Shown piece after piece: positions 4,625-56,038 of a stretch of 64,000 nt of DNA. The notes under the pieces are model-generated. The model was not told where the DNA came from. It searched no databases and saw only the letters and a list, made by a program, of their open reading frames with translations. The stretch's first letter is position 1. Each line of letters begins with the position of its first letter. This stretch comes from Xanthomonas sp. DAR 35659 (GTDB lineage Bacteria > Pseudomonadota > Gammaproteobacteria > Xanthomonadales > Xanthomonadaceae), in assembly GCF_041242975.1 (NCBI RefSeq), contig NZ_CP162488.1:3834001-3898000 (forward strand). The letters are read 5' to 3'. The position numbers and the translations under genes were made by a program.

Positions 4625-4672
4625 GGGATTGGGGATTGGGGATTGGGGATTGGGGATTGGGGATTGGGGATT
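4625..4672. repeat. GGGGATT heptamer tandem array
   Basis: Six perfect copies of GGGGATT (4631-4672) follow one truncated copy (4625-4630). The array lies upstream of rpsP, between rpsP and pabC. Such GGGGATTG arrays are typical of xanthomonad intergenic regions. On the other strand it reads AATCCCC repeats. Confidence 0.95.
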
Positions 4673-54218: not shown

Positions 54219-54644
54219 ATGCGCTCTCTCGCTCTCGCACTGCTCGCCCTGTTCGCCCTGGGCCATGCCGGCACGGCGCGTGCCGATGGCTGCGGCGGCA
54301 ATCTGATCGACTACAAGCCCGTGCGCATCGGCGGCGAAAAGGTCGGCGAACTGCAGCTGTACTACAACAACGGCAACGGCAAGAACTGCGCGGTGTTCTC
54401 GCACGCCGGCCCGACCTGGGGCAAGCCCCTGATCACCAGCGTCGAGGTGTTCGTCTGCAAGCCCAACAAGAACAACTGCGGCGTGTGGCAGGAAAAGCCG
54501 TGGTGGGATCGCGACGACGGCACATACTCCTACCAGGCCGGCCCGGTACGTATCGACGGCGAAAACAAATGCGTGCGGGCGATCGGCTATCTCGACTACA
54601 AGGGCCAGACCGGCGTCGCCGTCTCGGACGTGCACTGCCGCTAG
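54219..54644 (+). CDS. Small secreted cysteine-rich protein of unknown function
   Basis: A 141-aa protein starting MRSLALALLALFALGHAGTA, a signal peptide cleaved near ARADG. The mature protein of about 118 residues has six cysteines (DGCGG, KNCAVF, FVCKP, NNCGVW, NKCVRA, VHCR), suggesting three disulfides and an extracytoplasmic location. GAGG precedes the ATG at good distance. No family was recognised. Confidence 0.7.
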   Translation: MRSLALALLALFALGHAGTARADGCGGNLIDYKPVRIGGEKVGELQLYYNNGNGKNCAVFSHAGPTWGKPLITSVEVFVCKPNKNNCGVWQEKPWWDRDDGTYSYQAGPVRIDGENKCVRAIGYLDYKGQTGVAVSDVHCR

Positions 54645-54684
54645 TCGTTCTCGACGCCGCCCCCTGTAGATACCGTCTTCCCCC

Positions 54685-55656
54685 CTAACAGGCAAGGGCC
54701 TTTTGAGGGTCGAAGGGCGTGCGCGATTTGAGCACGCCGTAGGCGATATGCAGCAGCTTGCGCATGGCGGCGCAGATGATCTGCTTGTTGGCCTTGCCGC
54801 GTTCGCGCAGGCGTTGTTTCAGCGCACGCACGACCGGGTTGTGGGTCATGGCGACCAAGGCCGGCAGGAACAGGCCGGCGCGCAGGCGTGGGGAGCCGGT
54901 ACGGGAGATGCAGACCTGCCCCTTGCGCTTGCCGGACTCCTGCAGCCGTGGATTCAACCCGGCGAAGGCGGTCACCGCCGAGGCCTGGGAGAAGCGCTCC
55001 ACGTCGCCGAGCTCGGCCAGCAACAGCGCCGCGCTCCTCTCGGCGATGCCGTCGATGCTGACCAGCAGCTCGCGCTGCCCGCGCAGGGTAGGATCCTTGT
55101 CGATCTGGTCGTCGATGGCCCGTTCGATCTGGGCGATGTTCGCTTGCAACTGGCCGATGATCTCCAGCAGCGAGTCGCGCACCACCGGCGCGGCGACGTC
55201 CAGGCGGTTGCGCTCCATCTGCAGCATCTGCAGCAGGTCCTCGCGCCGACGCACCAGCGCCTTGAGGTGCTTGAGCGCCGGCGGATCGGACTGCCACGGC
55301 CGCAATTGCGACGCATGGCGCAGGCCGTAGCTGGCGATCAGCTTGGCATCGCTCCGGTCGGTCTTGACCCGGGTCAGCTGGCTGCGCGCATACAGCGCCG
55401 TCTGCGCCGGGTTGAGGACGCATACGCGGTAGCCCAAGGCGTGCACGAACTCAGCCAGGGCCTCGTGGTAGGTGCCGGTGGCTTCCATCACGATCCAGCT
55501 GTCCGCCTGCGCATGGCTCTGCAGCCACGTCCGTAGGGCCTGGAACCCCTTCGGATCGTTGGAAAGCTTGGCCTTGGTGCGGTACTTGCCGTTGGCCAGG
55601 TCGATGGCCAGGTCGAAACGGTGTTTGGCGACGTCGATACCGACGACTGGGGACAT
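54685..55656 (-). CDS. IS110-family transposase/recombinase
   Basis: A 323-aa recombinase. The RuvC-like DEDD half has D8 (VVGIDVAKHRFD), E58 (IVMEATGTYHEAL), D100 and D103 (VKTDRSDAKLIASYG). A helical linker follows. The C-terminal Tnp20 half has SIDGIAERSAALLLAELGDV, FAGLNPRLQESGKRKG with the conserved serine at about 241, and ISRTGSPRLRAGLFLPALVA. No frameshift or stop interrupts it, so it looks functional. The start at 55656 is supported by GGAGGAA eight bases upstream; ATG 55671 is also in frame. Confidence 0.93.
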   Translation of the reverse strand: MSPVVGIDVAKHRFDLAIDLANGKYRTKAKLSNDPKGFQALRTWLQSHAQADSWIVMEATGTYHEALAEFVHALGYRVCVLNPAQTALYARSQLTRVKTDRSDAKLIASYGLRHASQLRPWQSDPPALKHLKALVRRREDLLQMLQMERNRLDVAAPVVRDSLLEIIGQLQANIAQIERAIDDQIDKDPTLRGQRELLVSIDGIAERSAALLLAELGDVERFSQASAVTAFAGLNPRLQESGKRKGQVCISRTGSPRLRAGLFLPALVAMTHNPVVRALKQRLRERGKANKQIICAAMRKLLHIAYGVLKSRTPFDPQKALAC

Positions 55657-55697
55657 GGGGAATTCCTCCATCGTAGGGTGAACACGATCACCGCTGC

Positions 55698-55888
55698 GCC
55701 CGGTCCTGCCTTGTGGATGCGAGTTCACGCCTGCGGCGGACTCTGGATACCGTACGGACACCGATGGGCCAGCATATGCAATGCGGGAGCCAATCTACAA
55801 TGCAAGCTCGTGGCTTTAGGAGCGACTGGGCTTCCCGCACTGCTCCGATGATCAGTCGGAAGACATAAGGCCACGTGGGCCTCATGTC
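55698..55888 (-). ncRNA. Predicted IS110 bridge RNA
   Basis: The non-coding end upstream of the transposase folds into three parts, read leftward. First, an 11-bp 5' hairpin (55862-55888, stem GACATGAGGCC/GGCCTTATGTC). Second, a loop closed by 55829-55843 and 55778-55791, holding GTCGCTCCT (55818-55826) and CATTGTAG (55795-55802). Third, a loop closed by 55756-55769 and 55698-55706, holding ACGGTATCC (55745-55753) and CACAAG (55710-55715). The first two guide segments match the REP target on each side of the CT core, and the last two match the element ends. Ends of the transcript are approximate. Confidence 0.75.
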
Positions 55889-55898
55889 CAGATACAAG

Positions 55899-55963
55899 GA
55901 GCGGCTTTAGCCGCGACCGAGCCTTACCGGGAAGGCCCGGTCGCGGCTGAAGCCGCTCCTACA
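55899..55963. repeat. REP-like inverted pair split by the IS110 element
   Basis: GAGCGGCTTTAGCCGCGACC (55899-55918) is the remainder of a REP arm whose first bases CTGTAG are at 54664-54669, on the other side of the insertion. The complementary arm is intact at 55940-55963. Before insertion this was an ordinary REP pair downstream of the M61 peptidase gene. Confidence 0.88.
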
Positions 55964-56038
55964 GGGGCGATCACGGGCGATGGCGCGCAAGCGGCGCAAC
56001 GCCGCCCGCGGCCGCACCGCCTTGCCAGCGCCGCGCGC

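What the first reader, a model, noticed from the sequence alone, without database searches (positions are those of the whole stretch)
55698..55888. IS110 bridge RNA whose four guides match the observed target and donor ends
Seen: the non-coding end upstream of the transposase folds into a 5' hairpin and two internal loops. On the transposase strand, loop 1 carries GTCGCTCCT, which equals the left target plus core (GCCGCTCCT) except for one U-for-C that still allows G-U pairing. It also carries CATTGTAG, complementary to the right target CTACAGGG over the core and next three bases, plus one wobble. Loop 2 carries ACGGTATC, identical to the last bases of the short end plus C of the core, and CACAAG, complementary to the first bases of the long end (CTTGT). 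Known: IS110 (IS621) bridge RNAs have left then right target guides in the first loop and left then right donor guides in the second, with a CT core. The order and logic agree here. Inference: this element encodes a REP-programmed bridge RNA.
Basis: partly seen in the sequence, partly recalled or inferred. Interest (0 to 1): 0.88.

Follow-up and report, generated by a model that had tools for sequence, protein, structure and literature searches.

The report
RNA-guided jumping gene targeting genome palindromes
This is an IS110-type jumping gene whose non-coding end appears to encode a guide RNA that spells out both its own ends and the repeated palindrome it inserts into; it is a well-supported new example of a recently discovered kind of system, not a new kind.

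Summary
The window holds an IS110-group element (54670-55896, minus strand, CT core on both sides) with a 323-aa recombinase related to IS621 and ISCro4. All 5 full copies in the genome sit at the predicted REP site. In 86 insertions of the family, 84 left targets pair with their own guide at all seven non-core positions. Over 15 guide lineages 105 of 105 positions pair; permuted pairings average 63 and reach at most 88. Donor ends co-vary with donor guides in distant relatives. Sixteen copies of a second IS110 lineage are in the genome; 13 of 14 examined lie in the same REP, core shifted 3 bp. Transcription, RNA binding and recombination were not tested. Novelty: new member of a known kind. 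Leads: how guide DNA avoids being its own target, and whether ISPpu9's small RNAs belong to a bridge-RNA system.

The parts
54670..55896 (-). IS110-group element without its cores (1,227 bp; 1,229 bp with one core)
   Evidence: Ends fixed by five copies at different sites
54668..54669 (-). CT core at the right end of the element
55897..55898 (-). CT core at the left end of the element
54685..55656 (-). Recombinase, 323 aa (stop codon included); D8, E58, D100, D103 and S251 at the DEDD and Ser positions
   Evidence: PF01548 and PF02371; aligned to IS621 8wt6, E 4.7e-63, and ISCro4 9t56, E 3.9e-64; residues
54670..54684 (-). Right end, 15 nt
55657..55896 (-). Left end, 240 nt, containing the bridge RNA
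   Evidence: model R1 finds it once in the window, 188.7 bits (the window is one of the 24 sequences the model was built from)
55698..55888 (-). Predicted bridge RNA, approximate limits
   Evidence: ends of the RNA not measured
55862..55888 (-). 5' stem-loop
   Evidence: at least 9 pairs in the first 40 nt in 60 of 60 distinct left ends
55844..55860 (-). Small conserved hairpin
55778..55843 (-). Target-binding loop with its stem
   Evidence: basal stem of 5 or more pairs in 50 of 60 relatives folded as a cut segment, absent in 10
55818..55826 (-). Left target guide GUCGCUCCU
55795..55802 (-). Right target guide: GUAG, extended by U (pair) and U (wobble); then one mismatch and one pair
55793..55794 (-). 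Handshake bases AU; fit donor T7 and A6
   Evidence: compared with passages
55693..55773 (-). Donor-binding loop with its stem
   Evidence: 4 or more basal pairs in 60 of 60 relatives
55746..55753 (-). Left donor guide ACGGUAUC
55710..55718 (-). Right donor guide AU-CC-ACAAG
55708..55709 (-). Handshake bases GC; G fits target C7, C does not fit T6
   Evidence: compared with passages
55897..55905 (-). Left target GCCGCTC plus core CT, in a REP
54662..54669 (-). Core CT plus right target ACAGGG
54690..54695 (-). -35-like TTGCCT; with -10-like TATCTT formed across the core in the circle, spacing 17
   Evidence: weak (8 of 12 bases), and no promoter-like site in the integrated sequence

Best explanation
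The element is an IS110-group insertion sequence, probably of the ISPpu9-like kind. Proposed cycle: the recombinase excises the element as a circle; joining of its ends creates a promoter and the left end is transcribed into a bridge RNA of about 190 nt. The first internal loop of the RNA pairs with the REP target (left guide with the bottom strand, right guide with the top strand); the second loop pairs with the joined element ends. The recombinase exchanges strands at the CT core shared by REP and circle. Shown here by sequence: ends, targets, guide complementarity, conserved fold, guide-target co-variation, recombinase homology. Inferred from IS621: transcription, RNA binding, circle formation, guided recombination.
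For: Four guides in IS621 order and register. 0 of 20,000 shuffles have them in order. 5 of 5 copies at the predicted REP site; uninterrupted REP at the orthologous place in G016 and G017. 84 of 86 left targets fully paired, 117 of 118 in the enlarged set; 15 lineages 105/105, permuted mean 63.2, sd 6.1, maximum 88, 0 of 100,000; full match only at the guide offset (1.00, next best 0.63). Donor guide and donor end changed together in G046, G215 and the second lineage. 33 consensus pairs, 14 with changes on both sides. Recombinase close to IS621 and ISCro4.
Against: No transcript or activity data. L074 and L134 have left targets that do not fully pair. Right target bases beyond CTAC pair poorly: position 12 fits in 66 of 81, position 14 in 10 of 81 by Watson-Crick. 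The junction promoter is weak and part of its -10 is built into the search motif. 10 of 60 relatives do not form the target-loop stem when the cut segment is folded. Rfam has no matching bridge-RNA family.
Confidence: 0.92

Rival explanations
1. The left end is only a structured 5'-UTR controlling recombinase translation (the 2021 model for ISPpu9), and the target is chosen by protein-DNA contacts; the guide matches are captured remnants of REP sequence.
For: The ISPpu9 tnp mRNA has a 244-nt 5'-UTR whose structure limits translation (PMC8450116, abstract, passages and section 16). Left end and 5'-UTR have about the same length.
Against: Guides in 15 lineages each match their own target, also where hosts use different repeats; donor guides change with donor ends; the same positions are the guides in IS621. 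The two roles can coexist.
Confidence: 0.04
2. The match of guide and target is a by-product of where copies land (common descent of element and host REP), with no base-pairing in action.
For: Elements and hosts are related within genera, so the permutation test overstates independence.
Against: Match is exact at one offset only. It holds in lineages with unlike repeats, such as GCAGCGG, GACCGCC, ACCCATC and TTCGCCC, and the second lineage in the same genome has guides fitting a site 3 bp away.
Confidence: 0.02
3. The bridge RNA is real but this element is no longer active.
For: No activity data; two of five copies differ from the window copy at 13 and 14 places and one recombinase fragment exists.
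Against: Three full copies identical over 54668-55898 and open frames in all five suggest recent movement.
Confidence: 0.15

Closest known systems
ISPpu9 of Pseudomonas putida KT2440
   Same: REP target, AG direct repeat (CT on the other strand), long leader before tnp (PMC8450116); relatives from P. putida W15Oct28 and P. shirazensis with 57-58% recombinase identity sit at GCCGCTCCT.
   Different: ISPpu9's own sequence was not compared. It has two small RNAs, antisense Asr9 and sense Ssr9; neither was looked for at transcript level here, and no solo bridge RNA was found in 7 Xanthomonas-like genomes.
IS621 of Escherichia coli
   Same: Recombinase E 4.7e-63; left-end bridge RNA with the same guide order and lengths, CT core, REP target.
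   Different: Other REP and other guide sequences; the pair that is non-canonical in IS621's right donor guide is A-T here; a further conserved hairpin follows the 5' stem-loop.
ISCro4
   Same: Best match among solved structures, E 3.9e-64. That ISCro4 is used as a bridge recombinase is recalled and agrees with a search listing.
   Different: Only protein sequences were compared.

Membership tests
IS110 family, IS110 group | DEDD RuvC-like domain plus C-terminal domain with conserved serine | tested here: met
   PF01548 and PF02371; residues aligned to IS621
IS110 family, IS110 group | Left end much longer than right end, RNA in the left end | tested here: met
   240 nt against 15 nt
IS110 family, IS110 group | CT core at both ends and in the unoccupied target | tested here: met
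IS110 family, IS110 group | Promoter rebuilt across the core in the circle | tested here: inconclusive
   TTG hexamer 17 bp before TATCTT in 35 of 41 modelled junctions, 8 of 12 bases in the window element
[quoted passage not shown]
   (target-loop stem not formed in 10 of 60 cut segments)
IS621-type bridge RNA | Loop 1 pairs with left and right target, core included | tested here: met
IS621-type bridge RNA | Loop 2 pairs with left and right donor, right donor guide bipartite | tested here: met
   co-variation
IS621-type bridge RNA | RNA is transcribed and bound by the recombinase | not testable with these tools
   no transcript or binding data
IS621-type bridge RNA | Recombination depends on and follows the RNA | not testable with these tools
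   needs an experiment
IS1111 group | Right end longer than left end, bridge RNA in the right end (PMC11208160 section 12) | tested here: not met
   right end is 15 nt
IS1111 group | Sub-terminal inverted repeats of 7-17 bp | not tested
   -

The most novel reading that the evidence does not exclude
In this family the DNA encoding the left target guide is a ready-made self-target, and the element protects itself through the right half-site: targets continue CT-AC, the guide DNA never does (0 of 48 distinct left ends). The protection leaks: in L119 the element's start is joined exactly behind its own guide. In the same family ISPpu9's antisense RNA Asr9 would be an antisense regulator of a bridge RNA, and the orphan Ssr9 units flanked by element ends would be mini-elements carrying a bridge RNA alone.
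Probability: 0.25. Interest if true: 0.65.

Novelty: new member of a known kind. Interest (0 to 1): 0.42.

Why it matters
It is a clean natural record of bridge-RNA reprogramming: relatives in Xanthomonas-like and Pseudomonas genomes carry left guides that follow the palindrome of each host, and one right-guide base follows the host's commoner REP variant. It also puts two distantly related bridge-RNA lineages in one palindrome, three bases apart, in one genome, and suggests that small RNAs already measured for ISPpu9 in Pseudomonas putida should be re-read as parts of a bridge-RNA system.

Tried and rejected
Rfam: no bridge-RNA match; sX14 at 26.6 bits (gathering score 80) on the plus strand and two microRNA models below gathering, taken as chance or REP structure. 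Plasmids: no near-identical copy of the element; a 79.6% identical recombinase on a Xanthomonas sacchari plasmid. Promoter/terminator scan of 54600-56000: none found.

Solo bridge RNAs: in 7 genomes searched with model R1 (E up to 0.01, 150 candidates scored per genome) each strong match has a recombinase match beside it; G017 has one with the recombinase in two pieces and one weak match (30.6 bits) belonging to a distant IS110 element. In Pseudomonas-type genomes many short matches lie at contig ends and were not counted as solo units. KT2440 was not reached, so the Ssr9 idea is untested.

L119: an 83-bp repeat at the guide. Insertion at its own guide fits; replication slippage between the two CGCTCCT repeats fits as well. 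Unresolved.

Right-guide base 12 and site preference: 23 of 32 insertions in G008 and G009 at CTACG, which REP availability alone nearly explains (P = 0.07); not claimed.

Rows left out: 94 element calls became 86 after 6 duplicate loci and 2 partial or double structures were dropped. In the enlarged set 17 of 135 insertions had no automatic guide call, 16 of these 17 match and L074 does not. Eighteen loci without a recognised left end (L189, L191-L193, L204, L239, L241-L243, L245-L251, L261, L262) are not in the counts; of them L189, L192, L193, L204, L241 and L243 were read one by one, together with L190, L168 and L175.

'Not in print' rests on open full-text searches of PubMed Central. Apart from one sentence in PMC11208160 on ISPpu9's small RNAs, no paper was found that links ISPpu9 or a Xanthomonas element to bridge RNA. 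Most hits were seen as listings only; in PMC12765450 (passages) 'self-insertion' concerns CRISPR-associated transposons, not IS110.

Full report
What is there. On the minus strand of 54670-55896 lies an IS110-group element. Five full copies are in the genome: three identical over 54668-55898, and two (L003, L005) that differ from the window copy at the same 13 sites, L005 at one more; there is also one recombinase fragment. The 323-aa recombinase matches PF01548 and PF02371 and is closest among solved structures to ISCro4 (E = 3.9e-64) and IS621 (E = 4.7e-63). Named protein neighbours include Xanthomonas graminis (91% identity) and X. sacchari (79%), so the genome is probably a Xanthomonas; it is unnamed here.

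Target. All five copies are flanked by GCCGCTC-CT on one side and CT-ACAGG on the other. GCCGCTCCTACAGG occurs uninterrupted 198 times in the genome, the reversed control 0 times. The orthologous place in two relatives, G016 and G017, carries a REP without the element (80% identity across the joined flanks; alignments). The fragment's right flank also starts CTACA.

Guides. The left end (240 nt) holds a 5' stem-loop, a small hairpin, and two stems with internal loops. Loop 1: GUCGCUCCU and GUAG, the latter extended by one pair and one wobble. Loop 2: ACGGUAUC and AU-CC-ACAAG. This is the IS621 register: PMC11208158 (passages only) gives a 9-nt left target guide, a 4-nt right target guide, an 8-nt left donor guide, and a right donor guide of two plus four pairs with two flipped-out bases and one non-canonical pair. 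Here that last pair is a normal A-T. The handshake bases of loop 1 (AU) fit donor T7 and A6; those of loop 2 (GC) fit target C7 but not T6.

Not chance. None of 20,000 dinucleotide shuffles has the four guides in order. Better, the guides follow the targets. In 86 distinct insertions (5 of the window's genome, 32 loci from named genomes, mostly Pseudomonas and Stutzerimonas plus one Rhodoferax MAG, and 49 from six congeneric genomes) 33 left targets equal the guide at 7 of 7 non-core positions, 51 have six plus one wobble, and two fall short (L134, L074). In the enlarged set 117 of 118 insertions with an automatic guide call pair fully; 17 of 135 had no call. Fifteen guide lineages, each with its commonest target, give 105 of 105 paired positions; permuting targets among guides gives 63.2 on average, 88 at most, in 100,000 trials. 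Related guides are not independent, so this is not a strict probability. The match is complete at the guide offset and 63% at the next best.

Right guide. Of 81 insertions with enough flank, the core CT pairs in 81 and 81, A10 in 80 plus one wobble, C11 in 80, position 12 in 66 plus one wobble, position 13 in 32 plus 25 wobbles, position 14 in 10 plus 5. Guide base 12 is U in G000, G017 and G018, whose REPs read TACA:TACG 433:13, 357:2 and 565:11, and C in G008, G009, G010 and G011, with 155:151, 131:237, 96:153 and 16:18. The TACG counts of G000, G017, G018 and G011 are at or below the reversed-pattern control, and G011's TACA count is near it, so G011 says little. All 19 insertions in the three U genomes (5, 6 and 8) are at CTACA. 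In G008 and G009 23 of 32 are at CTACG, not clearly more than availability predicts (P = 0.07). So the guide follows the host's REP; site preference at that base is not shown.

Donor. In the 25 related loci printed both donor ends are the same as each other (25 of 25), and in the 24-sequence alignment the left donor guide and the paired bases of the right donor guide, apart from one, are invariant, so co-variation cannot be tested there. Distant relatives differ and mostly stay complementary: G046 has donor ACAGTATC with guide ACAGUAUC; G215 has donor ACGATATC with guide ACGAUAUC; G017's distant element (L175) has donor ACAGTTGA-CT-TGTGT with guide ACAGUUG and C for the changed right-end base, with a mismatch at position 7. 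In second-lineage copies of the window's genome that C pairs only if three bases rather than two are looped out.

Second lineage. Sixteen further IS110 recombinases, 26-30% identical, lie in the genome. Fourteen were fetched; in 13 both ends could be read, and all 13 sit in the same REP with the core three bases upstream: AAGCCG-CT (12) or AAACCG-CT (1) on the left, CT-CCTACA on the right, with a right guide GUAGGAG.

Promoter. Joining the ends gives TTGCCT, 17 bp, TATCTT. A TTG hexamer at that spacing is kept in 35 of 41 distinct modelled junctions. The match is weak (8 of 12 bases) and the -10 part is built into the search motif. PMC11208160 (abstract, sections 5, 6, 7, 12, passages) reports such a junction promoter and an RNA of about 177 nt for IS621.

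ISPpu9. PMC8450116 (abstract, passages, section 16) found a 244-nt 5'-UTR, an antisense RNA Asr9 over it, and a sense RNA Ssr9 flanked by copies of the element ends, with three orphan copies not at REPs; overproducing Asr9 raised transposition about 3.8-fold. Given the relatives here, that 5'-UTR should contain the bridge RNA; Asr9 would then act on a bridge RNA, and Ssr9 may be a second one. This is inference: KT2440's sequence was not in the material read.

Self-target. The guide DNA is by nature a perfect left target. Targets continue with AC; the guide DNA continues TA, GA, AA, AG or CA in 17, 14, 10, 6 and 1 of 48 distinct left ends, never AC. In L119 an 83-bp repeat places the element's start exactly behind its guide. 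Slippage between CGCTCCT repeats explains it as well as recombinase action.

Verdict. A convincingly predicted bridge-RNA element: a new member of a known kind, with good side leads.

Noticed in passing
G000: L012-L025 and two more places: A second IS110 lineage (16 copies, 26-30% recombinase identity) with its own bridge-RNA-like left end; 13 of 14 fetched copies sit in the same REP as the window element, core shifted 3 bp.
   Followed up: partly
L119 (G009:C1:3586807-3588975): 83-bp tandem repeat that joins the element's start exactly behind its own left target guide: self-targeting or replication slippage.
   Followed up: partly
PMC8450116, ISPpu9: Asr9 is antisense to the region that should hold the bridge RNA; Ssr9 lies between copies of the element ends and has orphan copies not at REPs: possible solo bridge-RNA units.
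   Followed up: no
window 55843-55950, plus strand: Weak Rfam match to Xanthomonas sRNA sX14 (26.6 bits, gathering 80), resting on the conserved small hairpin and the REP.
   Followed up: partly
L176 (G025:C18:1-7500): Left-end fragment with target loop repeated at 502 and 2576 before the full copy at 4650, spacing 2,074 bp; tandem duplication or assembly artefact.
   Followed up: no
G017:C1:830788-831755; L091: One recombinase copy split in two pieces (G017) and one with an in-frame TAG (L091, G009).
   Followed up: no
L168-L172 (G024): A second, distant bridge-RNA family in Pseudomonas sp. BN417 (8 matches of 78.7 bits); in L168, the one read, the left guide carries CCCATCCT like the left flank.
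   Followed up: partly
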